A stretch of 64,000 bases of DNA from a virus: IMG/VR virus record IMGVR_UViG_3300013286_000501, positions 1 through 64,000 of that record; one strand, given 5' to 3'. The notes beneath the pieces are model-generated. The model had not been told where the DNA came from and did not search any database. It was given only the letters and a program-made list of their open reading frames with translations. Position numbers and translations under genes: made by a program. Positions 11,136-43,070 of this stretch are shown here, piece by piece (position 1 is the first letter of the stretch; each line of letters opens with the position of its first letter).

Positions 11136-11806
11136 TGAAAAAAACTATTGCCCTGTTCTTACACCAACCAATGTGTAGCATACAGTCGGGAAATGGGATC
11201 ATTAACGCATTACAATCCCATTACAATTTTAAAATTTTTACCAAACACGAGTTAGAAGACAGCTTCTTTGATGATGTTGATATGCTAGCCTTTCCCGGGG
11301 GCTTTGGCAACTCTGATAGCTATGACTATCTAATGAAGATCAACAGTAAGCCCATTACCAACTTTATAAACAGCGGTGGCTATTACCTTGGTATATGTAT
11401 GGGAGCTTACTGGGCAGGTAAAAATTACTTTAAACTGTTAGAAGGTGTTGATGCTGTCCAATACTACAAAAGACCCACAGCCTGCACTCGTCGTCCACAT
11501 ACTAAAAATATGCCAGTGACTTGGCAAGGAGTAGAGGATAAGATGTTCTTTAATGATGGATGTACATTTGTGGGCTCGGGCAAGTATGAAACCTATGCTA
11601 CATACTCAAATGGTGAGCCTATGGCTATCATTCAAAATAGATTAGGATTAATAGGTTGCCACCCAGAGAGTGAGAAGTTTTGGTATGATAGTTATCCGCA
11701 GCTTATCGGACAATATCACAATGGCGCTCACCATACCCTACTACTAGACTTTGTTAATACTTTATTTCGAAGTAGCTCTGAAGGTTCCGTCCCAGTCACT
11801 AGGTAA
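11135..11806 (+). CDS. BPL_N-like class I glutamine amidotransferase-fold protein
   Basis: 223 aa. A flavodoxin-like start, AFPGGFGNSDSYDYL, then the nucleophile elbow GICMGAYWAG with Cys near residue 89, and GCHPESEKFW with a possible catalytic His/Glu. This is the glutamine amidotransferase-like fold of the biotin-protein ligase N-terminal domain family. Substrate unknown. Its 3' end overlaps the convergent adenylate cyclase gene by 45 bases. Confidence 0.6.
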   Translation: MKKTIALFLHQPMCSIQSGNGIINALQSHYNFKIFTKHELEDSFFDDVDMLAFPGGFGNSDSYDYLMKINSKPITNFINSGGYYLGICMGAYWAGKNYFKLLEGVDAVQYYKRPTACTRRPHTKNMPVTWQGVEDKMFFNDGCTFVGSGKYETYATYSNGEPMAIIQNRLGLIGCHPESEKFWYDSYPQLIGQYHNGAHHTLLLDFVNTLFRSSSEGSVPVTR

Positions 11807-13822
11807 GTCTTTGTTACGCATATCGGCAATGCGATCAATCCACAGTTCATAGTAGTGATCCATATTGCCATCAAAGCTACCTGTAAGTTCTTTACATAGC
11901 GTGATAGCTTTATCCCAATCCTGTTCGCGATAGTATTGTAACATAAGCTCATGTTGTTCTCTAGCACTGTTCCATGCTTCTGCTACAGTCTCATCTGGCA
12001 TGTAATTCACTGTAAAGATATTAACACCAACTGTCTTACCTTTAACTGCAATACAGTCCAGAGGTATTGTAAAGTATATATCGCTAACACGTTGCTCTGT
12101 GCTTTCACTAATAATGATCTTTTGTCCGTAATTCTTTGTTTGGCTTTCTAATCGTGCAGTTAAGCTGACACTGTCACCTAGTACGTCATAACCAAAGCGG
12201 TCCTTACTGCCAATATTACCAATTAGAGTTTGCCCAGTATTAATACCTAGTCCCATACCCACACGTGGTTTGCCTTCTTCTTCTAACTCAATGTTGAACA
12301 AGTCAACAGCATGAATCATTTCCAATCCAGTACGAACAGCAGCATGGGCATGATCAGGATCTTGTTCTTCTTGAATAGGAGCACCATGAACGTGCAATGA
12401 TGCATCACCAATGAACTTGATCAAACAACCGTTGTTGCGTAGAATAGGTTCAGAAATAGCAGTCATGTAACGATTCATTGTATTGGTAAATGCTACAACA
12501 TCCTCGCCGTAGGTCTCACCTAGGCCTGTGAAGTTACGCATGTCGCTCATTATAATAGTAAGCTCTTTCTTTTCACCGCCTAGTTTAATAAAGCTAGGAT
12601 CTTTCTGTAGACGTTCTACAATAACAGGATTGACATATGATCCAAACTGTTTTTTGATTGCAGACTTTTGTAAGTATTCGCTTACAAATTTGACACTATA
12701 TGCATGAATGTATACCAAACTAGTAGCAACAATAAACCAAGTGGCGTCCAATAAGATTCTGGAAGTTTCGTATAGGTATGATACAGCAAAGTGACTAGCA
12801 CCGAGAAAGATAATAATAGGAAGAAAAGCATAAGTCCACCTTGATAAAAATAATACCAACAGTCCTGCTACAAGAACGGCAAAGATCTCTGCATCATCGG
12901 CCCACTCCGGTCTCTTGATAGATGTTCCGCTCATTAACGTGCCCAACAAAGTAGCCTGCATATATTGGGGCCATACCTCGCCTCGAGCAGTAGCAACGGG
13001 ATTAACAAGCCCAGCAGCACTTAACCCAACAACAACAACTTCACCGTTAAAGGTTTGTGGTAGTTTAGCTAGACTGTATTCTTGCGGAGTCCTGCTCCAA
13101 TCAATCCATACACGGCTTAATGCATCTGTTTCAACTTTTCCAAATTTAGGAACACGTAGAGCTTCTACACCCATGTCTCCAATCTTAATTTGGAACTTGG
13201 GATCCTTGGCTGCAACACGCAATGTCTCCAATGCTAGGCTAGGATGAATGATGTTATCACTCATAATGACCAAAGGCATACGGCGAACAACACCATCAAC
13301 CTCTGGGAATGTATTAACAACTCCAACACCTGCGGCAGCTTGTTCAACTGCTGGCACGTTGGCAATGATACCAGGATACTCTACTATAGCACCACCCGGA
13401 TCTGCACCTACTACTTGGGCAACACTCTTGGAAGGTATGTTCTTATCCTTGGCTCCACCTAGTTCAGGCAGGACCACGGGCAACTGACCGAGTACCCTAG
13501 CCAGTTGGCCATCTTGACCAAATCGGTCTGGCTCTGGCATAAGAATATTAAACACGACAAGGCCAGCGCCACGGTCGTAAAGGTCTTTAATAATAGCCCC
13601 ATAGGTTGCCCTTGGGAACGGGAATTGTCCATATTTTTCTAACGCCTCTTCATCTATGTTAACTGTGTTTACGGGAATGATTTCTGCCGGCTGTGCGGTG
13701 ACTAACTGGTCAAAATAACGGAGTCTAACTGACTCCACAAAACTAGGATCGGCAAGTCTAATGCCTAACATTAAGGCCAGTGTCACTACAGCCAGCCACG
13801 GTGATAATAATATTTTCTTCAT
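11762..13822 (-). CDS. CHASE2-domain adenylate/guanylate cyclase
   Basis: 686 aa from ATG 13822 with site GGAGAAGAA. An N-terminal membrane anchor, a periplasmic CHASE2 sensor domain (about 30-290), three membrane helices (about 310-395), then a class III cyclase domain (about 430-600): LTIIMSDMRNFT with metal Asp, KFIGDASLHVHG, and GINTGQTLIGNIGSKDRFGYDVLGD. Class III cyclases make cAMP or cGMP. It is the last gene of the curli operon; in bacteria CHASE2 cyclases often sit next to FecR-domain genes, as here. It may signal through host CRP-type regulators. Confidence 0.85.
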   Translation of the reverse strand: MKKILLSPWLAVVTLALMLGIRLADPSFVESVRLRYFDQLVTAQPAEIIPVNTVNIDEEALEKYGQFPFPRATYGAIIKDLYDRGAGLVVFNILMPEPDRFGQDGQLARVLGQLPVVLPELGGAKDKNIPSKSVAQVVGADPGGAIVEYPGIIANVPAVEQAAAGVGVVNTFPEVDGVVRRMPLVIMSDNIIHPSLALETLRVAAKDPKFQIKIGDMGVEALRVPKFGKVETDALSRVWIDWSRTPQEYSLAKLPQTFNGEVVVVGLSAAGLVNPVATARGEVWPQYMQATLLGTLMSGTSIKRPEWADDAEIFAVLVAGLLVLFLSRWTYAFLPIIIFLGASHFAVSYLYETSRILLDATWFIVATSLVYIHAYSVKFVSEYLQKSAIKKQFGSYVNPVIVERLQKDPSFIKLGGEKKELTIIMSDMRNFTGLGETYGEDVVAFTNTMNRYMTAISEPILRNNGCLIKFIGDASLHVHGAPIQEEQDPDHAHAAVRTGLEMIHAVDLFNIELEEEGKPRVGMGLGINTGQTLIGNIGSKDRFGYDVLGDSVSLTARLESQTKNYGQKIIISESTEQRVSDIYFTIPLDCIAVKGKTVGVNIFTVNYMPDETVAEAWNSAREQHELMLQYYREQDWDKAITLCKELTGSFDGNMDHYYELWIDRIADMRNKDLPSDWDGTFRATSK

Positions 13823-13865
13823 TTCTTCTCCAGGGTGTATACACCTATTATCATTGTATTTAACA

Positions 13866-14366
13866 TTAACCCATAAAGCGGGTAAAGAATACCCAGGATA
13901 GTGCAACAACAGGAATTAGAACAGCAACACCGCCTACAAAGTATAGGAATACTTCCACAACTTTTGCTAGTTCTTCTCGCTTGATACGCTTCTGTCTTTC
14001 TATTTCAACAGCAGCAGCGGCACGCTCTTTGTAGATACGAATACGTTCTTTCATCATATCTTCCCAGACATCTCCATTACCGGAATAAATCAGTATATTT
14101 TTTAGTGCCCTTTCGTCTTCTCGAAGTTTCTTAGAAGCCATTGCTACCTGAAATGCTAGACCTCGAACATCTGAATCGGACCTGTTAGCACTTTCTATAC
14201 GCAATTTGGCATTTGCAGTATGTACCTCATCACTAGAACTAAAGAACTTACTGAAATCATTGTATAATTGCGAGATATCTTTACCTAGTGCTTGAGCTTT
14301 CTTAATGCCATCTACTGCGCTCCTGGCTGCTGCAAATGCTAAACTGATACTAACGGGATCAATCAT
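13866..14366 (-). CDS. Conserved phage-type protein with C-terminal membrane helix
   Basis: 166 aa: an N-terminal small-residue region (SLAFAAARSAVDGIKKAQALG), a long charged helix (about 60-130) and one hydrophobic helix near the end (FLYFVGGVAVLIPVVALSWVFF). This layout resembles small proteins of marine T4-like phages. It lies inside the curli operon, ATGA-coupled to the small ORF before it. Function unknown. Confidence 0.5.
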   Translation of the reverse strand: MIDPVSISLAFAAARSAVDGIKKAQALGKDISQLYNDFSKFFSSSDEVHTANAKLRIESANRSDSDVRGLAFQVAMASKKLREDERALKNILIYSGNGDVWEDMMKERIRIYKERAAAAVEIERQKRIKREELAKVVEVFLYFVGGVAVLIPVVALSWVFFTRFMG

Positions 14367-14506
14367 TTTTTCTTGTCCTTATCCTCTTTGGGCTTGCTCC
14401 ACTCTAAGCATATGGACACACGGGTATAGTCTTTGCCTACCCAATACCACCGTAAGCATCGAGGCTCTGCTAACAAATAAATTGATAGCATTGCTGCGGA
14501 AAGCAT
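14363..14506 (-). CDS. Small protein, 47 aa, unknown
   Basis: Starts MLSAAMLSIYLLAEPRC and ends with a Lys/Asp-rich tail. Start overlaps the curlin stop (TAATG) and its stop overlaps the next start (ATGA). The site AAGGAAC precedes it. Short hydrophobic N-terminus then CLRWYWVGKDYTRV; such basic aromatic motifs occur in small phage proteins next to the coiled-coil gene. Function unknown. Confidence 0.55.
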   Translation of the reverse strand: MLSAAMLSIYLLAEPRCLRWYWVGKDYTRVSICLEWSKPKEDKDKKK

Positions 14507-15927
14507 TATTTGTTCCTTATAACGGAAACACTACATCCAACTGGATTGGTGCAAATTTGTTGTAGGTTGTAGGCATCACCTGCGCCTGTTTGAATAACAC
14601 TCACTGTATTAGCTCCACCTGCATTTACAAGACTCAATACAGTCCCGTGATTGTTGCCAGTTTGTGATACGGTGGCCACATTGTTGTTTCCGTATAAGTT
14701 TGCTGCTGCAATGTTGCCATTACCAGTTTGCCCGAAAGATAAAGAATTATTATTTCCACTTATAGTACTGTATACTTGATTATTGTTACCAGTCTGGGTA
14801 GCTAATAATGAATTATAAGTTCCTGTAGAACTAATAATGGCGCTATTACTATTACCAACCTGTGAGTTGACTACTCCGTTAAAATTGCCCGATACTGCTA
14901 CAGCCGATAAGTTGTAGTTACTGGCATTGGCAGATTCTGTGGATGCCCCTGTAGTGTTGAATGTATAACCTTGTCCCAGTCTAACAATATTGTTAGACCC
15001 ACCCAGACTAACACTTTCATAGTTGCCACGCCCACTTTGATTGGTAGTTACTTTATTGCTAGCACCAGCATTTGTTTGTGTTATGTAAACACTGTTTTTA
15101 TTTGTGCTAGCATTGGGACTAACTGGAATAGTAGTAGGTCCAGTAACTGTGTAGTTCCAAGTAGTGTCGCTAGTAGTTGTAGGAGTACCTCTCGAAGTAG
15201 TCTTACTACCATCACTATATGTAGTAGTTGTTACAGGAGTAGTAGTTGTTGTAATTGTTGTGGGTGTGCTAGTTCCTACTACAGAATATGTGCCGCCGCT
15301 CCATTGATATGTGTTAGATGTAGTTTCTGTAGGACCTGTAGAACTACTTGACCCAACTTCGTTAGCTGTACTAGTTCCTGTTACAGTCGGCGACGCGGGT
15401 GCAGATGGTTGTGCTGTCTGTCCGGCGGCCAATGGGGTTGTACTACCATTGGCAGCGTATGCGTTAACCTGTGCTACGGTAGGGTTTAATGTTCCAGTCC
15501 AAGATACACCGCTAGTGTTGGAAAATCCTTGTGTCATACTAAACAACTGTCCAGTATTATTATCATTGCCCACAAAGAAGAAATAATCGTTGCCCATGTT
15601 AATAATATGGCCAGTACCCAATACTGCCTTCTGTGCTCCGTTGGCAGAGTATTGAATAGCATTGAATGGGTTAGTACTGTTACCTGTGGTTGCAAAGGCA
15701 ACGTAATCACCTGCAGCCCATGTTAATTTTCCACTAGTCCACGGAATCTTGTATACTGTTCCTGGATTCTTACTATAGATTTGACAAGTTGCTGTTTGTG
15801 TACAGGCACTGACATTCCATTGACTATCTGCTATTTGTGCTTGCCCAAATTTTAAATCCGACAAGCTGGTTGCCTGTGCAGTTAAACACATCATTAATGC
15901 AAAAATAAATGATAGAAATTTTTTCAT
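14506..15927 (-). CDS. Large curlin-repeat secreted protein
   Basis: 473 aa. Signal peptide (MKKFLSFIFALMMCLTAQA), a globular region to about 165, a Ser/Thr/Pro-rich linker to about 280, then curlin-type repeats to the end: repeated (S/V)xxxQ-x-G-x-x-N-x-(A/V) units such as QTGNNNQV, GNNNSLSFGQTGNGN and QTGNNHG. Curlin repeats form beta-solenoid amyloid strands. It may be the nucleator or adhesin partner of the smaller curlin at 17076. Two cysteines (CTNPVGC) near the C-terminus are unusual. Confidence 0.75.
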   Translation of the reverse strand: MKKFLSFIFALMMCLTAQATSLSDLKFGQAQIADSQWNVSACTQTATCQIYSKNPGTVYKIPWTSGKLTWAAGDYVAFATTGNSTNPFNAIQYSANGAQKAVLGTGHIINMGNDYFFFVGNDNNTGQLFSMTQGFSNTSGVSWTGTLNPTVAQVNAYAANGSTTPLAAGQTAQPSAPASPTVTGTSTANEVGSSSSTGPTETTSNTYQWSGGTYSVVGTSTPTTITTTTTPVTTTTYSDGSKTTSRGTPTTTSDTTWNYTVTGPTTIPVSPNASTNKNSVYITQTNAGASNKVTTNQSGRGNYESVSLGGSNNIVRLGQGYTFNTTGASTESANASNYNLSAVAVSGNFNGVVNSQVGNSNSAIISSTGTYNSLLATQTGNNNQVYSTISGNNNSLSFGQTGNGNIAAANLYGNNNVATVSQTGNNHGTVLSLVNAGGANTVSVIQTGAGDAYNLQQICTNPVGCSVSVIRNK

Positions 15928-17063
15928 TATTTGTAGCTCTGGTTAATGATGATACTGCCTTGAGGCTTATTATAACCACCTGCAAAGTTATAGGCATCTG
16001 TTACACGATCCTGTGTTACTACGACTAATACTTTGTTGTCGTTAATTAAAGTTATGGCGGTAAAGTTATTACCGTTAGGACTCAAACTCATATATCCCCA
16101 TCCTAGTTGGTTTAAATTAGGGTTATCGTTTTTATACATTCCAACAACGTGTTCATTTTCATAAGGTTTATCCGAAACCTTAATGCCTTTGTTCTTGAGT
16201 TCATTTAACAGTGATAGGGCTCGATCTTCAGCAGCCTGTGCAGCCGCAGTCTTTTGTTGATTATCTTTTTGTTGATCAGCTGATGCTTGGGCTTCTGCTG
16301 CTGGAGGTTCTTTATTCTCTTTATCCCCACCATCCTTTTTAGAGTCGCCTGTCTTTTCAGCAGCTGATTTTGCAGCCTGCTGTATGGCAATACCGGACAT
16401 TGTCGATGGTGGTTTGATGATTAGATTATTGCCAATTGGTGTATTGCTTAAATTAACAACTACAGGAGGGCTTGGGGGAGTGCTTGCTGTCTCAACGATA
16501 GTAGCCTGGTATGGTTTGTCTAAACGGATTATAGTAGATCCACTATCTACATCAATTTTACCACTACCACATGTTAAGCCTTTTAGGTTAATGTTTTGGT
16601 CAACTTCACATGTTGGCATCAACATGATCATACTTTTGCCAGTTTCGTCAACAGCCATAACAAAGTCTGTACCACGTACAGCAATGGCCGCTGTAGGAGT
16701 ATTGATTTTTACACTGTTGGGATTGTTGTGTGCGATATTACCAGATACATAACGTACAGTTCCGGCAGCAGCCTTAAGACCTAGCTTGCCGCCTGCAGCA
16801 TTTTTAGGATCGTATACAAAGTCATCGATTATTAAAGTAGAGTTTTCTGTGACCTTAACGGTAGTATCGTCTTTGAATCGAATATTAACAACACCGTTTT
16901 TGGTTTCTACTTTATCATTGGTTTCGATAGGAGTACCGTTGGCTACTGCAATAGTTTCTTTGCCGCGTTTAATAACCGCTGTGCCTTTTAGTTCAACAAC
17001 TGAACCAATATCGGCAACAGCAGCCGTAGCAACTAACCATAACAGGATGGCCCATTTTTTCAC
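15927..17063 (-). CDS. FecR-domain periplasmic protein
   Basis: 378 aa. Signal peptide (MKKWAILLWLVATAAVA), then a FecR fold: GTPIETNDKVETKNG, IRFKDDTTVKVTENS, and a strand reading AIAVRGTDFVMAVDE. The middle is rich in Lys, Gln and Ala (about 235-285). FecR domains bind ligands or signal partners at the cell surface. TAATG-type overlap with the following curlin gene. Likely partner of the CHASE2 cyclase of the same operon; this pairing is inferred from typical bacterial gene neighbourhoods. Confidence 0.75.
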   Translation of the reverse strand: MKKWAILLWLVATAAVADIGSVVELKGTAVIKRGKETIAVANGTPIETNDKVETKNGVVNIRFKDDTTVKVTENSTLIIDDFVYDPKNAAGGKLGLKAAAGTVRYVSGNIAHNNPNSVKINTPTAAIAVRGTDFVMAVDETGKSMIMLMPTCEVDQNINLKGLTCGSGKIDVDSGSTIIRLDKPYQATIVETASTPPSPPVVVNLSNTPIGNNLIIKPPSTMSGIAIQQAAKSAAEKTGDSKKDGGDKENKEPPAAEAQASADQQKDNQQKTAAAQAAEDRALSLLNELKNKGIKVSDKPYENEHVVGMYKNDNPNLNQLGWGYMSLSPNGNNFTAITLINDNKVLVVVTQDRVTDAYNFAGGYNKPQGSIIINQSYK

Positions 17064-17075
17064 AATAGCCCCTTA

Positions 17076-17882
17076 TTAACGGCTTTTCTGAATGATGTTA
17101 AAACTACCACCGGCGGCAGTTGCTTGGATATTAGCTACGTTAGAGAATGTACCAGTTTGGCTAACATTGAATGTTGTGCCGCCTGATCCATTCTGTGCCA
17201 ATACCAAACTGCTCATGCTTGCGCTAGTTTGTAATACATTTACCGTATTATTATCACTACCGGTTAAGTTGATCAACATCTGTTGACCAGCTGTGCTATC
17301 TTGTCGTAGGTTAAGTGTATTACCATTGCCAGTAACATAAACAGCAGCCTGTAGCTGTGATCCATTGCCAGTATAGTTTGCAGTGTTGCTATTACCGCTG
17401 AATCTTAAGTCTAACAGTGCATTAGTGCCAGCTTGTGCAGACCCAGTTGTGGTTACTGTTTGACCAGCACTTACATTAGCTGTGTTGCTATTGCCCGATT
17501 GTAACAAATAAACATTGGCTTGATCACCTTTAACTCGTAATGTGTTAATAAGGTTGTTGTTGCCAGTTTGGTTAAGTGTAATAATTTGACTATCACCTTC
17601 TAACTTCATACTGTTAATTGTGCCAGTTGCATCGCTACCAGCACGGTTGCTATTACCGTCTTGGTTGATACTAACTGTTGGCGCACTACCAGTCTGCTCT
17701 AGATAGATAATGTTAGTTGTAGCAGCATTGCGAGAAGCAGTTACGCCAGCCGCAAAACGTGTTGTCGATTGATCAGTAATAGCAGGTGCTGATGCCTGTG
17801 TAGGTGCTGTGGGTGCAGTTTGTGCATAAACAGATCCTACGAATATACCTGCTAGTAGTGTTGCTAGTAGTTTTTTAATCAT
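17076..17882 (-). CDS. Curlin-repeat protein (CsgA/CsgB-like)
   Basis: 268 aa from ATG 17882 (site GGAGAAAACACT; upstream ATGs at 17906 and 17930 are less likely). Signal peptide ending VGSVYA, then about nine curlin-like repeats with Q-x-G-x-S-N-x-A/L spacing: INQDGNSNRAG, LNQTGNNNLIN, LLQSGNSNTAN, LAQNGSGGTTF. These are the hallmark of amyloid subunits secreted through CsgG. Longer than E. coli CsgA (about 150 aa). Confidence 0.8.
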   Translation of the reverse strand: MIKKLLATLLAGIFVGSVYAQTAPTAPTQASAPAITDQSTTRFAAGVTASRNAATTNIIYLEQTGSAPTVSINQDGNSNRAGSDATGTINSMKLEGDSQIITLNQTGNNNLINTLRVKGDQANVYLLQSGNSNTANVSAGQTVTTTGSAQAGTNALLDLRFSGNSNTANYTGNGSQLQAAVYVTGNGNTLNLRQDSTAGQQMLINLTGSDNNTVNVLQTSASMSSLVLAQNGSGGTTFNVSQTGTFSNVANIQATAAGGSFNIIQKSR

Positions 17883-17926
17883 AGTGTTTTCTCCGAGAGT
17901 TTTCATTTTTACTCCTGTTTTTTGGA

Positions 17927-18856
17927 TCATCTGATCCCTGTACTTTCTTCTTTGTTTCCTCCAGCATCTTTTCTGATGCTGGGCTGCTGCGTTGCCTTGG
18001 TAGGTGTTTTGGTATCCCCTTCGGACGCGGTTTTACTTTGAACCAACTCATTAGACGCCTCCTTGTATTTCCATAATCCTAACTTCTCACCCTTCTTCAC
18101 CATTTCAACAACACCTTGTTCAATTGCCGAACGAAGTGCATAGTTTCCAGGTTCATTGAACGTCTGGCTTGAATCAAACTCAAACGACTTTGTTCCCTGA
18201 TCGTAAAATCTCATTGCAGTAGCACCATCTTGTGTACTCAATAAGTTCTTTTCAATAGTCACAGATGATAAAACTTCACCTGTTTGAACACTGATCAGTC
18301 TCAAGCTGATAACAACTTGATCTTGTGTATAGCTAGTATATGGACCGATACCTAATATAGCAAATCCAGTACCACCTGTTAGCACGTTACTATTGTAATC
18401 AATAACGCCACCTTCTAGGATAACACCTGCTAATGTTAGTGGCGGAAGCATTTTAGCTTCGGCGCCTTCATAAATTTCACGAGTTTGTTTGATCATCTGA
18501 CGCTCTTTTAAAAGATTGTCTAGATTGCTACGTTCTACAACTGTGAACCATTGACGGTTTCCAGCTTCCTGTAGACTCTTGATTAGATAACTTTCAGCAC
18601 CCTGTGTAACTGCTGTACTGAAGGAACTTAATGTTACACTTGGCTTACGTTGACCGGTAAGATCTTTGAAACTATAAACTGCCACCGCAATTTTTTGACC
18701 TGCAGGTGCTGGTAGTGTATTGATCTCTTTAACAATAGTTGTTGAAACTTTTGGCGCTTCAGTTAGACTAATGTGTTCGCCCCATGGACGAATTGAAGAA
18801 CAGCCTGTCATTGCGGCTAGTGCTAGGGCAATAGTTGTTAATTTTAGTAATTTCAT
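17927..18856 (-). CDS. csgG: Curli secretion channel CsgG
   Basis: 309 aa lipoprotein with lipobox MTGC at Cys 19. KIAVAVYSFKDLTGQRKPS, VVERSNLDNLLKERQMI, LAGVILEGGVIDYNSNVLTGG and the TYTQDQVVISLRLISVQTGEVL strand match CsgG, which forms a nonameric outer-membrane pore for curlin export. The C-terminal 40 residues are an extra charged tail (KTASEGDTKT...). Lies between csgF and a curlin gene. All channel-domain motifs appear intact. Confidence 0.88.
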   Translation of the reverse strand: MKLLKLTTIALALAAMTGCSSIRPWGEHISLTEAPKVSTTIVKEINTLPAPAGQKIAVAVYSFKDLTGQRKPSVTLSSFSTAVTQGAESYLIKSLQEAGNRQWFTVVERSNLDNLLKERQMIKQTREIYEGAEAKMLPPLTLAGVILEGGVIDYNSNVLTGGTGFAILGIGPYTSYTQDQVVISLRLISVQTGEVLSSVTIEKNLLSTQDGATAMRFYDQGTKSFEFDSSQTFNEPGNYALRSAIEQGVVEMVKKGEKLGLWKYKEASNELVQSKTASEGDTKTPTKATQQPSIRKDAGGNKEESTGIR

Positions 18857-23110: not shown

Positions 23111-23140
23111 ATTATACAGTCTCTGTGACCTCTGCGTCAA
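23111..23140 (-). promoter_or_regulatory. Sigma70-type promoter of hsp20
   Basis: TTGACG (23135-23140), 18-base spacer, TATAAT (23111-23116), located in the last codons of dnaK and directed to hsp20. Confidence 0.6.
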
Positions 23141-24992
23141 CGATGTTATTATCCTTATCAGCTTTGGCTTTTTCTTCAGCCTCGTGCTTTTTACCAGTAA
23201 TAGGACCCATAGCTTCGTAAAGTTTTGGAATACTATCTTGGATGATCTTTGCATCGTCGCCTTTGATTGCATCTTCAACTGCTTTTACAGCATCTTCCGC
23301 ATTGGCTTTTTCTTCAGCAGTCACTAGATCGCCGTACTTTTCTACATCGCCTTTGAAGCCGTGTAGTGTGCCTTCTGCGCTGTTGCGAGCTTCAATCAAT
23401 TCACGTTGCTTCTTATCTGCTTCTGCATTAGCTTCTGCATCTTGAACCATACGTTCGATTTCTTCCTTGCTCAACCCACTGTCGGACTTGATAGTGATCT
23501 TGTTCTCTTTGCCTGTGCCTTGGTCTTTGGCACTGATCTTCATGATACCGTTGGCATCAACATCGAATGTAACTTCAATCTGTGGTGTGCCGCGGCGTGC
23601 TGGAGGAATACCATCCAACTTAAAATCACCAAGTGCTTTGTTGTATTGGAACAACTCACGCTCACCCTGTGCCACTTTGATATCAACAGCAGGTTGATTG
23701 TCTTCAGCAGTGCTGAACACTTGACTTGCCTTGGTTGGGATAGTTGTGTTCTTCTGAATCAACTTGGTAAACACACCGCCCATGGTTTCAATGCCTAAAC
23801 TCAATGGAGTAACATCCAACAATAGAACGTCAGTGCGGCCACCGCCTAGAACATCACCTTGGATAGCAGCACCTGCGGCAACTGCTTCGTCTGGATTAAC
23901 ATCCTTACGTGGAGCCTTGCCGAATAGTTGTTCAACAACTTCCTGCACCTTTGGCATACGTGTCATACCACCAACTAGAATAACTTCGTCAATATCGCTA
24001 GCACTAACACCTGCATCTGACATGGCAGTCTTGCAAGGGCCGATACTGCGCTGGATCAATTCTTCAACTAGCTGTTCTAACTTACTGCGTGTAAGTTTAA
24101 CATTCATGTGCTTGGGACCACTTGCATCTGCTGTGATGTAAGGAAGATTAACATCTGTCTGGGCACTACTTGACAGTTCAATCTTGGCCTTTTCAGCAGC
24201 TTCTTTCAAGCGTTGCAGGGCCAACATGTCTTTCTTAAGATCAACACCGTTGTCTCGTTTGAATTCATCGACCAAGAAGTCCATGATACGTTGGTCGAAG
24301 TCTTCACCACCTAGGAATGTATCACCGTTAGTGGATAGAACTTCAATTTGTTTGTCGCCTTCAACGTTGGCAATTTCAATAATGCTCACATCAAATGTTC
24401 CACCACCCAAGTCATAGACTGCAATCTTACGATCACGCTTGTCTTGTTTATCAACACCATAGGCCAATGCAGCCGCAGTTGGTTCGTTGATGATACGCAA
24501 TACTTCAAGACCTGCAATCTTACCTGCGTCTTTGGTTGCCTGACGTTGGCTATCGTTAAAGTAAGCCGGAACTGTGATAACAGCCTGTGTCACTTCGTGG
24601 CCCAAATAGTCTTCCGCAGTTTTCTTCATCTTGCGTAGAACTTCGGCGCTGATCTGTGGAGGTGCTAGTTTGTCGTTGTTTGCTTCTACCCATGCATCAC
24701 CATTGTCCGCCTTGATAATCTTGTAGGGCATCAAGTCAATGTCCTTCTGAACAGCCTGTTCAGTGAACTTTCGTCCGATCAAACGCTTGGCTGCATAGAT
24801 TGTATTCTTTGGGTTTGTGACTGCTTGGCGTTTTGCACTGGCGCCAACGAGGATTTCGTCATTAGCATAGGCAACAATACTTGGTGTAGTGCGAGCACCT
24901 TCTGCGTTTTCAATGATTTTTGTGATGCCGTTTTCGATAACAGCTACACAAGAGTTGGTTGTACCTAGGTCGATACCGATTACTTTGCTCAT
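23112..24992 (-). CDS. dnaK: Chaperone DnaK (Hsp70)
   Basis: 626 aa, close to full bacterial length. ATPase signatures [27 protein letters not shown] and [14 protein letters not shown] are intact, the linker [12 protein letters not shown] and the peptide-binding domain are complete, and the acidic lid ends VDAEVTETV instead of the E. coli EEVKDKK. DnaK refolds proteins with DnaJ/GrpE, which are not in the window. A consensus promoter stands upstream. A full-length DnaK is rare in phages. Confidence 0.95.
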
Positions 24993-32863: not shown

Positions 32864-32991
32864 TAGATGGTCTCGTAGTCTTCTTTGCCTACACCGCATT
32901 CTGGGCACAGGAAATCATCGGGCAAAGAATCCCATGCGCCTTCTAGTTCTTCACTGTGGACATGGCCACAAACAATACAAACGTGTTCCAT
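32863..32991 (-). CDS. Rubredoxin
   Basis: 42 aa. MEHVCIVCGHVHSEELEGAW then LPDDFLCPECGVGKEDY: the two C-x-x-C-G knuckles that bind one iron and the DDFLCP core. Starts on the rubrerythrin stop (TAATG), so expression is coupled. Delivers electrons to rubrerythrin. A start at 32991 is fixed by the overlap. Confidence 0.85.
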   Translation of the reverse strand: MEHVCIVCGHVHSEELEGAWDSLPDDFLCPECGVGKEDYETI

Positions 32992-33440
32992 TATAGTGAC
33001 TCCTTAACTTGTTGATACGCTTCTGCGTGACGCTGTTCTACTCGCTTCAATGCGGCAAAACGCTTTTCAGCTTTGGCTAGAACTGCGGCAAACTGATAAG
33101 CGTGTTCTTTACTTTCTTCAATTTGTGCTTTAGCTTCTGCTACGGCATTATCGTGGCCTTCGGCATTGGCGGCTGCTGCGAACTCTGGATACATTGTAGT
33201 GAACTCATATGTTTCACCTTCGATAGCCATTTCCAAACACTGCTTAACATCCGGCTTGCCGATCAGCAATTCCAAATGACCCCAAGCGTGTAGCAGTTCT
33301 TGGTCTGCGGTATGTTCGAAATGTTGGGCAACTTCTTCAAAACCTTGCGCTCTTGCCATCTTGGCAAAGTAGCGGTACTTGGTATGGGCCTGACTTTCAC
33401 CTGCGAAAGCGGCCTCTAAATTTTTAATTGTAACAGACAT
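32991..33440 (-). CDS. Rubrerythrin (diiron peroxidase), no rubredoxin tail
   Basis: 149 aa. Ferritin-like four-helix bundle with diiron ligands: AFAGESQAHTKYRYFAKMA (E), HFEHTADQELLHAWGHLELL (E..H), AIEGETYEFTTMYPEFA (E..E) and EESKEHAYQFA (E..H). The C-terminal rubredoxin domain of standard rubrerythrins is missing, but a separate rubredoxin gene follows with TAATG overlap. Reduces hydrogen peroxide. A stress-defence gene. Confidence 0.85.
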   Translation of the reverse strand: MSVTIKNLEAAFAGESQAHTKYRYFAKMARAQGFEEVAQHFEHTADQELLHAWGHLELLIGKPDVKQCLEMAIEGETYEFTTMYPEFAAAANAEGHDNAVAEAKAQIEESKEHAYQFAAVLAKAEKRFAALKRVEQRHAEAYQQVKESL

Positions 33441-36646: not shown

Positions 36647-36886
36647 TTAGAACATTTTTTTAGGTAGTTCGTTATCGCGTAGCTTCTTTAGCCAACGTGC
36701 CCTTGCAGCACCTTTCTTACGCTTACGTTCGGTAGTGGGTTTTTCAAAGTGAGTACGGGCTTTAAGTTCTTCCAACTTACCCGAATCATCTACACGTTGT
36801 TTAAATTTGCGAAGTGCTACAGGTAAAGGTAAGTCTCCTACCACTATTTTGGAGCCCTGAATTCCTTTGTCTTTATTTCTGCTCAT
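36647..36886 (-). CDS. rpsU: Ribosomal protein bS21
   Basis: 79 aa from MSRNKDKG at 36886, overlapping the clpX stop by 14 bases. LPVALRKFKQRVDDSGKLEELKARTHFEKPTTERKRKKGAARARW is the S21 core with its basic C-terminus. S21 helps the 30S subunit select mRNA starts near the anti-Shine-Dalgarno. Phage copies may replace host S21 and bias initiation to phage mRNA. Confidence 0.9.
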   Translation of the reverse strand: MSRNKDKGIQGSKIVVGDLPLPVALRKFKQRVDDSGKLEELKARTHFEKPTTERKRKKGAARARWLKKLRDNELPKKMF

Positions 36887-38099
36887 TTGCTTTCTTATCA
36901 AATATCATTGTAGCAGGCTTTCCGGCTACGGTATCTTTAGTTATCACAATTTTGGTTAAACCACGTTCTACAAGATTAATAGCATCAAATTGATAAGGTA
37001 GCAATGTCTTTTCCAGGATATTTTTAAGACCACGGGCATTAGTTTTAAGTTCTTTGGCCTTTTCTGCAATATAAGTCAATGCCGAATCTTCAAATGTTAA
37101 TTCAATACCATCTAACTCAAAGATATATTGATACTGATTAATTAGGCTATTCTTGGGTTCTTTAAGTACACTGACAAGGCTTTCTATACTCAATTCATCA
37201 ACATTGGTAATAAGTCCAAATCGACCAATAAATTCAGGAATCAATCCGTATTGGATCAAGTCTTTAGTAGTAGCCTGTTGATACAGATCGTTTGATTTAT
37301 TCTTATCAATGATAGCAGAGTGAAATCCCACACTGCGAGCATCTGTGCGCTTTTCAATGATCTTATCTAGTCCAACAAAAGCACCACTGCAAATAAACAA
37401 GATACTACGGGTATCGATCTCTTGCATGTCACTTCCCGGATGTTTACGTTTTCCCGAGAAAGGCACACGCATAATTGATCCTTCGACCATCTTTAGTAAA
37501 GCCTGTTGTACACCTTCACCACTAACATCGCGGGTAATTGATACGTTTTCGCCTTTACGGGCAATCTTATCGATTTCATCAATATAAACAATACCGCGTT
37601 GTGCTTTTTCGATGTCTCCGTCAGCTTCGTTCATTAGGCGTGTTAGGATACTTTCAACGTCATCACCCACATATCCCGCTTCTGTAATGCCAGTGGCATC
37701 ACAAATAGCAAATGGAAGATCTAGGTATTCGGCAATCTTACGTGCCAACATGGTCTTACCACAACCAGTAGGACCTAACATTAGTACGTTGGTCTTTTCT
37801 AGTTTGATTGTTTCACTTGGATTGTTTACACGTTTGAAGTGCTGACTAACTGCTACACTTAGTGCAATTTTAGCATCGTCTTGCCCTATAACATATTCGT
37901 CTAGGAAGTCCTTGATCAGTGATGGATTTAGTGTGGCGGTATCAGATGGAAACTTTTTGATTTTTTCATCTTTTAGTATATCGACACATAGCTCAACACA
38001 GTCGTTACATATTGCACTGTTCTCACCTACAATAAGTTTCTCTACATTCTCTTTGCTTTTTCCGCAAAAGTCACAGGTATGTTCAGGTTGTTTGGCCAC
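36873..38099 (-). CDS. clpX: ClpX ATPase
   Basis: 408 aa. N-terminal zinc domain ([12 protein letters not shown]...CNDCVELC), Walker A GPTGCGKT, Walker B VYIDEIDK, pore loop 1 GYVG, RKH loop (GKRKHPG) and the ClpP-docking loop as VGF in place of IGF; sensor regions LIPEFIGR and NARGLKN follow. All parts needed to engage ssrA tags and to dock to a ClpP appear present. ClpP itself is not in the window, so host ClpP would be needed. Phage ClpX is known from some large phages. Confidence 0.95.
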
Positions 38100-42794: not shown

Positions 42795-43070
42795 GTTTTG
42801 GTAACAAGGTAAGTCCTACCTCGGAGATCAAGCGGCTAGCGCCCAGACCTCATCGTTAGATGCGTTTGCATTTAGGTTTTTTGTGTCTTTGACCGGGTTC
42901 CCCCAATCCTAACGGCTTCTACATTGCCGGACAGTCCATTTCATTACTCTTGACCCAATCGATCCTGTGTCATCCCCACCTAAATATACAGCATACACTT
43001 AGGTGGAGATGTCGGGCACTGCCCCCGAGTCTTGAATCCTTTTCAATCTACTTCATACCATCATAACTTT
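42795..43070 (-). ncRNA. ssrA: Circularly permuted two-piece tmRNA
   Basis: On the minus strand the 3' (acceptor) piece comes first: GACTC, a T-arm-like CGGGGGCAGTGCCCG, then CATCTCC (43005-43011) and ACC. After an intervening loop the 5' piece starts GGGGATGA (42970-42977), pairing GGGGATG/CATCTCC. The intervening segment extends this as a 13-bp stem. Downstream comes the tag ORF starting GCA at 42869 and reading ANASNDEVWALAA, stop TGA at 42828. The 5' piece start resembles the bacterial GGGGCTGA..GGAT. It would be cut into two RNAs and rescue stalled ribosomes, adding an ALAA-ending tag. RNA ends are approximate; SmpB was not found in the window. Confidence 0.88.

What the first reader, a model, noticed from the sequence alone, without database searches (positions are those of the whole stretch)
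42795..43070. Phage-encoded circularly permuted (two-piece) tmRNA with an ALAA tag
Acceptor piece precedes coding piece, GGGGATG/CATCTCC acceptor pairing is intact, the intervening loop forms a 13-bp stem, and a tag ORF reading ANASNDEVWALAA ends in TGA. Permuted tmRNA is known from alphaproteobacteria, some betaproteobacteria and cyanobacteria; a complete permuted version in a phage would be rare and its tag peptide looks distinct.
Basis: partly seen in the sequence, partly recalled or inferred. Interest (0 to 1): 0.9.

Follow-up and report, generated by a model that had tools for sequence, protein, structure and literature searches.

The report
Phage two-piece tmRNA with capped end
A large bacterial virus carries its own two-piece version of tmRNA, the RNA that frees stuck ribosomes and tags their unfinished proteins for destruction; such genes turn out to be common in large aquatic phages, and what is unusual here is that the precursor's end is sealed in an almost unchanging hairpin and that the same phage also encodes ClpX, the kind of unfoldase that reads such tags.

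Summary
Window 43062-42828 (minus strand) is a circularly permuted tmRNA (Rfam RF04321, 100.6 bits, E 2e-18) with an intact acceptor stem carrying G3:U70, a T-arm, a covarying helix between the two pieces, and the tag ANASNDEVWALAA-TGA. It lies in an 80-kb fragment of a large tailed phage. It is not rare: pattern scans of IMG/VR stopped at their limit of 120 stretches, and permuted tmRNAs in marine phages were published in 2022. ARAGORN misses this subtype (0 of 31), so surveys undercount it.

Distinctive points: (1) the 3' end reads CCU, although all 16 phage tRNAs encode CCA, and the intervening segment extends the acceptor stem into one 19-bp hairpin; this form is known from Betaproteobacteria. 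(2) In phages the hairpin stem is nearly invariant (61 of 83 identical, across 31 T-arms) while its triloop varies; bacterial hairpins all differ. (3) Intervening segment and tag are exchanged separately between related phages. (4) The phage encodes a full ClpX 5 kb downstream; long relatives encode ClpP; no SmpB in 22 records.

Best reading: a functional phage tmRNA using host SmpB and host maturation. New variant of a known kind.

The parts
42828..43062 (-). permuted tmRNA, core of both pieces with intervening segment
   Evidence: RF04321 100.6 bits, full length
43058..43062 (-). helix P2, strand in the acceptor piece (GAUGG)
   Evidence: covarying pairs, 48 of 50
43012..43028 (-). T-arm UCGGG-GGCAGUG-CCCGA, alpha-like loop
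43005..43011 (-). acceptor stem, 3' strand CAUCUCC
   Evidence: pairs with 42971-42977; outer pairs covary
42978..43004 (-). ACC + intervening cap: ACCUAAGUGUAU-GCU-GUAUAUUUAGGU, 12-bp hairpin continuing the acceptor stem; CCU instead of CCA
42971..42977 (-). acceptor stem, 5' strand GGGGAUG, with G3:U70
42930..42934 (-). helix P2, strand in the coding piece (CUGUC)
42828..42869 (-). tag reading frame ANASNDEVWALAA and TGA stop
   Evidence: conserved in L003, L007, L144
42768..42789 (-). terminator-like hairpin with T-run
   Evidence: consensus match only
36873..38099 (-). phage ClpX, candidate reader of the tag (functional link inferred)
   Evidence: TIGR00382 498.5 bits; PDB 8e91 E 1e-123; syntenic in L003, L006, L007, L066

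Best explanation
The locus is a working, phage-encoded permuted tmRNA of the alpha/beta-proteobacterial kind. The precursor is transcribed leftwards and its acceptor end is sealed in a 19-bp hairpin. Host tRNA enzymes remove the cap (RNase P at the GGGG side; a 3' nuclease such as RNase Z at the discriminator, because no CCA is encoded), the host CCA-adding enzyme builds the end, and the two pieces stay together through the acceptor stem and helix P2. Host AlaRS charges it, host SmpB brings it to stalled ribosomes, and the tag ANASNDEVWALAA is added; the ALAA end marks the product for ClpX, the phage's own or the host's. Shown here: architecture, pairing, covariation, tag frame, CCU end, ClpX gene, no SmpB found in the records searched. 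Inferred: transcription, each processing step, charging, tagging, and the link to ClpX.
For: Full-length Rfam match; covariation in T-stem, acceptor stem and P2; conserved tag frame; G3:U70 kept; betaproteobacterial genes with the same CCA-less capped end and standard tags; same genomic place in related phages; tags of capped phage genes mostly end in LAA (27 of 43 distinct tags); ClpX with zinc finger, GYVG, RKH and VGF loops.
Against: Sequence only; no expression data. Scores are lower than those of bacterial genes (134-172 bits). The leader is paired with the trailer, which might hinder RNase P or RNase Z. No phage SmpB. Some relatives have tags not ending in LAA (e.g. LLAANA).
Confidence: 0.8

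Rival explanations
1. Decoy: the sealed, CCA-less acceptor end is not matured during infection, and the RNA binds SmpB without carrying alanine, blocking host trans-translation, as shown for the tRNA-domain-only tmRNA of mycobacteriophage DS6A.
For: CCU end and 19-bp cap; all 16 phage tRNAs do encode CCA; DS6A precedent.
Against: Tag frame and LAA ends are conserved across many phages, which a decoy does not need; Betaproteobacteria use the same end in what seems their chromosomal tmRNA.
Confidence: 0.1
2. The gene is a decayed or passenger host copy without function in the phage.
For: Lower covariance scores than bacterial genes; missed by ARAGORN.
Against: Covariation, tag conservation, same position in relatives, strongly conserved cap.
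Confidence: 0.04
3. The intervening segment, not the tmRNA, is what selection keeps: the excised hairpin acts as a small RNA or as a DNA recombination site, and the tmRNA is its carrier.
For: In phages the stem is more conserved than the mature RNA (61 of 83 identical across 31 T-arms; identity 0.89 against 0.70 and 0.71, though 12 of its 27 bases were fixed by the search pattern); a second 66-nt segment is identical in L002, L003, L005; segment and tag are exchanged separately.
Against: The motif does not recur elsewhere in the phage loci; the mature parts covary as a tmRNA must.
Confidence: 0.06

Closest known systems
beta_tmRNA (Rfam RF01850), permuted tmRNA of Rhodocyclaceae and relatives
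   Same: CCA-less end (Rfam consensus ACCcAAG) and leader-trailer hairpin
   Different: window scores 78.5, below the cut-off of 84; T-loop GGCAGUG instead of UUCGA-type; tag ANASNDEVWALAA instead of ANDERFALAA; cap stem invariant in phages, variable in bacteria
alpha_tmRNA (Rfam RF01849)
   Same: above cut-off (64.1 bits); GG-purine-GC type T-loop and AGGAUCGA region
   Different: 28 of 30 alphaproteobacterial genes inspected encode CCA and have an unpaired leader
Two-piece tmRNA of Methylophilales phage Melnitz and pelagimyophages (PMC9004378)
   Same: permuted tmRNA in a large aquatic tailed phage; curli-type genes also present
   Different: Melnitz gene has a predicted glutamine riboswitch and was found by ARAGORN; the window's subtype is missed by ARAGORN and no isolate phage matches its cap
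Bacillus phage G and Sinorhizobium jumbo phages AP-J-162 / Phosso
   Same: tmRNA together with ClpX (and ClpP) genes in one phage
   Different: phage G has no match to the permuted model; different ClpX (46-52% identity)
Huge phages with tmRNA and SmpB (PMC7162821)
   Same: large phages with ribosome-rescue genes and S21
   Different: SmpB not found in 22 records here

Membership tests
permuted tmRNA (RF04321) | full-length covariance-model match above the gathering score | tested here: met
   100.6 against 47 bits, model 1-213
permuted tmRNA (RF04321) | acceptor 3' strand precedes 5' strand; 7-bp acceptor with G3:U70; T-arm | tested here: met
permuted tmRNA (RF04321) | tag frame with hydrophobic-AA end and stop | tested here: met
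   ANASNDEVWALAA-TGA, conserved in relatives
permuted tmRNA (RF04321) | cleavage into two mature pieces held by base pairs | not testable with these tools
   pairing covaries; cleavage needs RNA data
alpha_tmRNA (RF01849) | score above gathering cut-off | tested here: met
   64.1 against 50
beta_tmRNA (RF01850) | score above gathering cut-off | tested here: not met
   78.5 against 84; relatives G008, G012, G019 pass
beta_tmRNA (RF01850) | CCA-less end with paired intervening segment | tested here: met
ClpX | equivalog score, zinc finger, GYVG pore loop, RKH loop, [LIV]GF docking loop | tested here: met
   498.5 against 370.75 bits; motifs read in the alignment to PDB 8e91
complete phage trans-translation system | phage-encoded SmpB | tested here: inconclusive
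   none in 22 records, but all are possible fragments

The most novel reading that the evidence does not exclude
Large aquatic phages run their own tag-and-destroy pathway: a phage tmRNA with its own set of tags feeds a phage ClpX (and ClpP), and the discarded cap is a sequence-specific signal that lets a phage or host factor decide when the tmRNA becomes active, by withholding the CCA end until the cap is cut.
Probability: 0.2. Interest if true: 0.78.

Novelty: new variant of a known kind. Interest (0 to 1): 0.5.

Why it matters
One subtype of phage tmRNA is invisible to the standard annotation program, so ribosome rescue by phages is undercounted. It offers a natural case in which the throw-away part of an RNA is more conserved than the mature RNA, and in which encoded or added CCA goes together with the pairing of the precursor. 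It also places a tmRNA and a tag-reading unfoldase in one phage, so that one can ask directly whether phages redirect protein degradation during infection.

Tried and rejected
Promoter or repeated element in the cap: the motif does not recur above chance in the window or in the other phage loci. Phage invention of the CCA-less cap: rejected, about 30 bacterial hits, mostly Betaproteobacteria, have the same form. DNA match of the window gene or its cap to isolate phages: none; more distant permuted genes in Alcaligenes phage QDWS595 and Acinetobacter phage BUCT628, both with CCA. ClpX next to the tmRNA as a general rule: rejected; only 6 of 35 ClpX loci had a tmRNA within 10 kb by my pattern, and nearness is confined to close relatives. 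Host: not settled; the alpha-like T-loop and beta-like cap point to different groups. The contrast CCA/unpaired against non-CCA/paired is clean only for in-register pairing (2 of 108 against 20 of 24 phage genes); 48 of the 108 show some complementarity if one base is skipped.

Full report
Observation. The minus strand from 43062 to 42828 matches Rfam tmRNA_permuted over its whole length with 100.6 bits (E 2.1e-18) and alpha_tmRNA with 64.1 bits, above its cut-off. The beta_tmRNA model scores higher, 78.5, but just misses its stricter cut-off of 84. ARAGORN finds the 16 tRNAs of the window but not this gene. In order of transcription there are a helix strand GAUGG (43062-43058), a T-arm with loop GGCAGUG (43028-43012), the acceptor 3' strand CAUCUCC (43011-43005), the segment ACCUAAGUGUAUGCUGUAUAUUUAGGU (43004-42978), the acceptor 5' strand GGGGAUG (42977-42971), and the tag frame ANASNDEVWALAA-TGA (42869-42828), followed by a terminator-like hairpin (42789-42768). 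The third acceptor pair is G-U, the alanine identity pair (established knowledge of AlaRS).

More than chance. The fold is more stable than all 200 shuffles. In 49 unique phage sequences, picked by a pattern that left the T-stem and the last three acceptor pairs free, those positions change in compensating pairs; for example one acceptor pair is U-A, C-G or G-C. The helix between the two pieces occurs in 10 strand combinations that form 48 of 50 pairs, against a mean of 38.6 when partners are reshuffled, 0 of 2000 as good. The tag frame is conserved: the same peptide in L003 and L007, and ANASNDEIYALAA in L144, which by my reading of the alignment differs by four synonymous and two amino-acid-changing codons.

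Carrier. The window is part of an 80,059-base virus record with baseplate/tail-fibre type proteins at its far end, ribonucleotide reductase, S21, DnaK, a tRNA cluster and many PHROG matches. Related contigs keep the gene in the same surroundings. No terminase was found in this fragment, but related records have one.

Rarity. Isolate phages have permuted genes that their records do not annotate: Alcaligenes phage QDWS595 and Acinetobacter phage BUCT628; Sinorhizobium phage Phosso has one too. Buchholz et al. 2022 described the two-piece tmRNA of phage Melnitz and counted 53 in phage genomes, 50 of them aquatic (PMC9004378). So the class is known. ARAGORN finds 24 of 27 bacterial loci with the capped pattern (the other three do not look like tmRNA), 68 of 78 capped phage genes with other T-loops, but 0 of 31 with the GGCAG loop, the window's type.

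The acceptor end. The window reads ACCU, not ACCA, although all 16 of its tRNAs encode CCA (tRNA-His read by eye with discriminator C). A 12-bp extension makes the precursor one continuous 19-bp hairpin with a triloop. In sets not selected for pairing, the leader pairs in register with the CC in 2 of 108 phage genes with CCA and in 20 of 24 without; in bacteria 0 of 34 and 3 of 4. In bacterial genomes the capped CCA-less form is mainly betaproteobacterial: most of 33 hits are Rhodocyclaceae and relatives with tags like ANDERFALAA, one is an alphaproteobacterial MAG. Permuted tmRNA passes the cut-off in 9 of 200 genomes sampled from the order of Dechloromonas and in 174 of 190 Alphaproteobacteria; 28 of 30 of the latter inspected encode CCA. 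The window thus combines an alpha-like T-loop and D-region with a beta-like cap.

The cap is oddly conserved in phages. Among 83 non-redundant capped phage genes there are 31 T-arms, yet 61 share exactly the stem ACCUAAGUGUAU/GUAUAUUUAGGU; 28 bacterial genes have 4 T-arms and 28 hairpins. The search pattern fixed the outer stem, but the inner six positions on each side were free and have 0 to 0.33 bits of entropy in the 49 unique sequences with a cap of the window's length, while the triloop has 18 variants. Three G-U pairs are conserved as such. These phages are related to one another, so common descent contributes, but the triloop shows that there was time to change. L002, L003 and L005 carry another intervening segment, 66 nt with CCA and identical in all three, while their coding parts are about 60% alike; L003 and the window share the tag but not the segment. 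I infer that segment and tag move as separate modules.

Partners. No SmpB was found in the own record or in 21 further records, so host SmpB is the likely partner, with the caveat that records may be fragments. At 36873-38099, same strand, the phage encodes a complete ClpX with zinc finger, GYVG pore loop, RKH loop and VGF in place of the IGF docking loop. It lies 3 to 7 kb downstream of the tmRNA in L003, L006, L007 and L066. The ClpX zinc finger is in 11 of 21 records, ClpP in 5, twice in four of the long ones; I had no background sample to say whether this is more than in other large phages. Bacillus phage G, with a standard tmRNA and ClpP- and ClpX-like genes, is a precedent.

Conclusion. 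A real and probably functional phage permuted tmRNA of a known class; a new variant by its mosaic make-up, its fixed cap and its setting with ClpX. Processing, charging, tagging and use of the phage ClpX are inferred.

Noticed in passing
window 36873-38099 (-), 36647-36901 (-): Full-length phage ClpX, overlapped by a gene for a ribosomal protein S21-like protein.
   Followed up: partly
window 23112-24992 (-): Full-length phage DnaK/Hsp70 of 626 aa (NCBIfam 979 bits); similar genes in several huge uncultured phages.
   Followed up: no
window 14506-18856 (-): Curli-type cluster: CsgG (17927-18856), a curlin-repeat protein (14506-15927) and a FecR-domain protein (15927-17063); curli genes also occur in phage Melnitz and pelagimyophages (PMC9004378).
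   Followed up: no
window 11762-13909 (-): Phage protein with CHASE2 sensor domain and nucleotide cyclase domain, 715 aa: a possible cyclic-nucleotide signalling gene.
   Followed up: no
L002, L194, L230, L235: Relatives with tags ending LLAANA instead of LAA, and others with long tags such as ANDDSFDFAALSFTGNTVGGRVALAA (L214); such ends may alter ClpX recognition.
   Followed up: no
L397 (Acinetobacter phage BUCT628), L396 (Alcaligenes phage QDWS595): Permuted, beta-type tmRNA genes not annotated in isolate phage records; the BUCT628 record names an Acinetobacter host.
   Followed up: partly
L171/L332: An alphaproteobacterial MAG (Hyphomicrobiales) with a CCA-less capped tmRNA of otherwise alpha type.
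   Followed up: no
window 32991-33440 (-): Rubrerythrin-like protein, 149 aa, below the curated cut-off; its relatives lie next to the tmRNA in L002, L006, L007 and L031.
   Followed up: no
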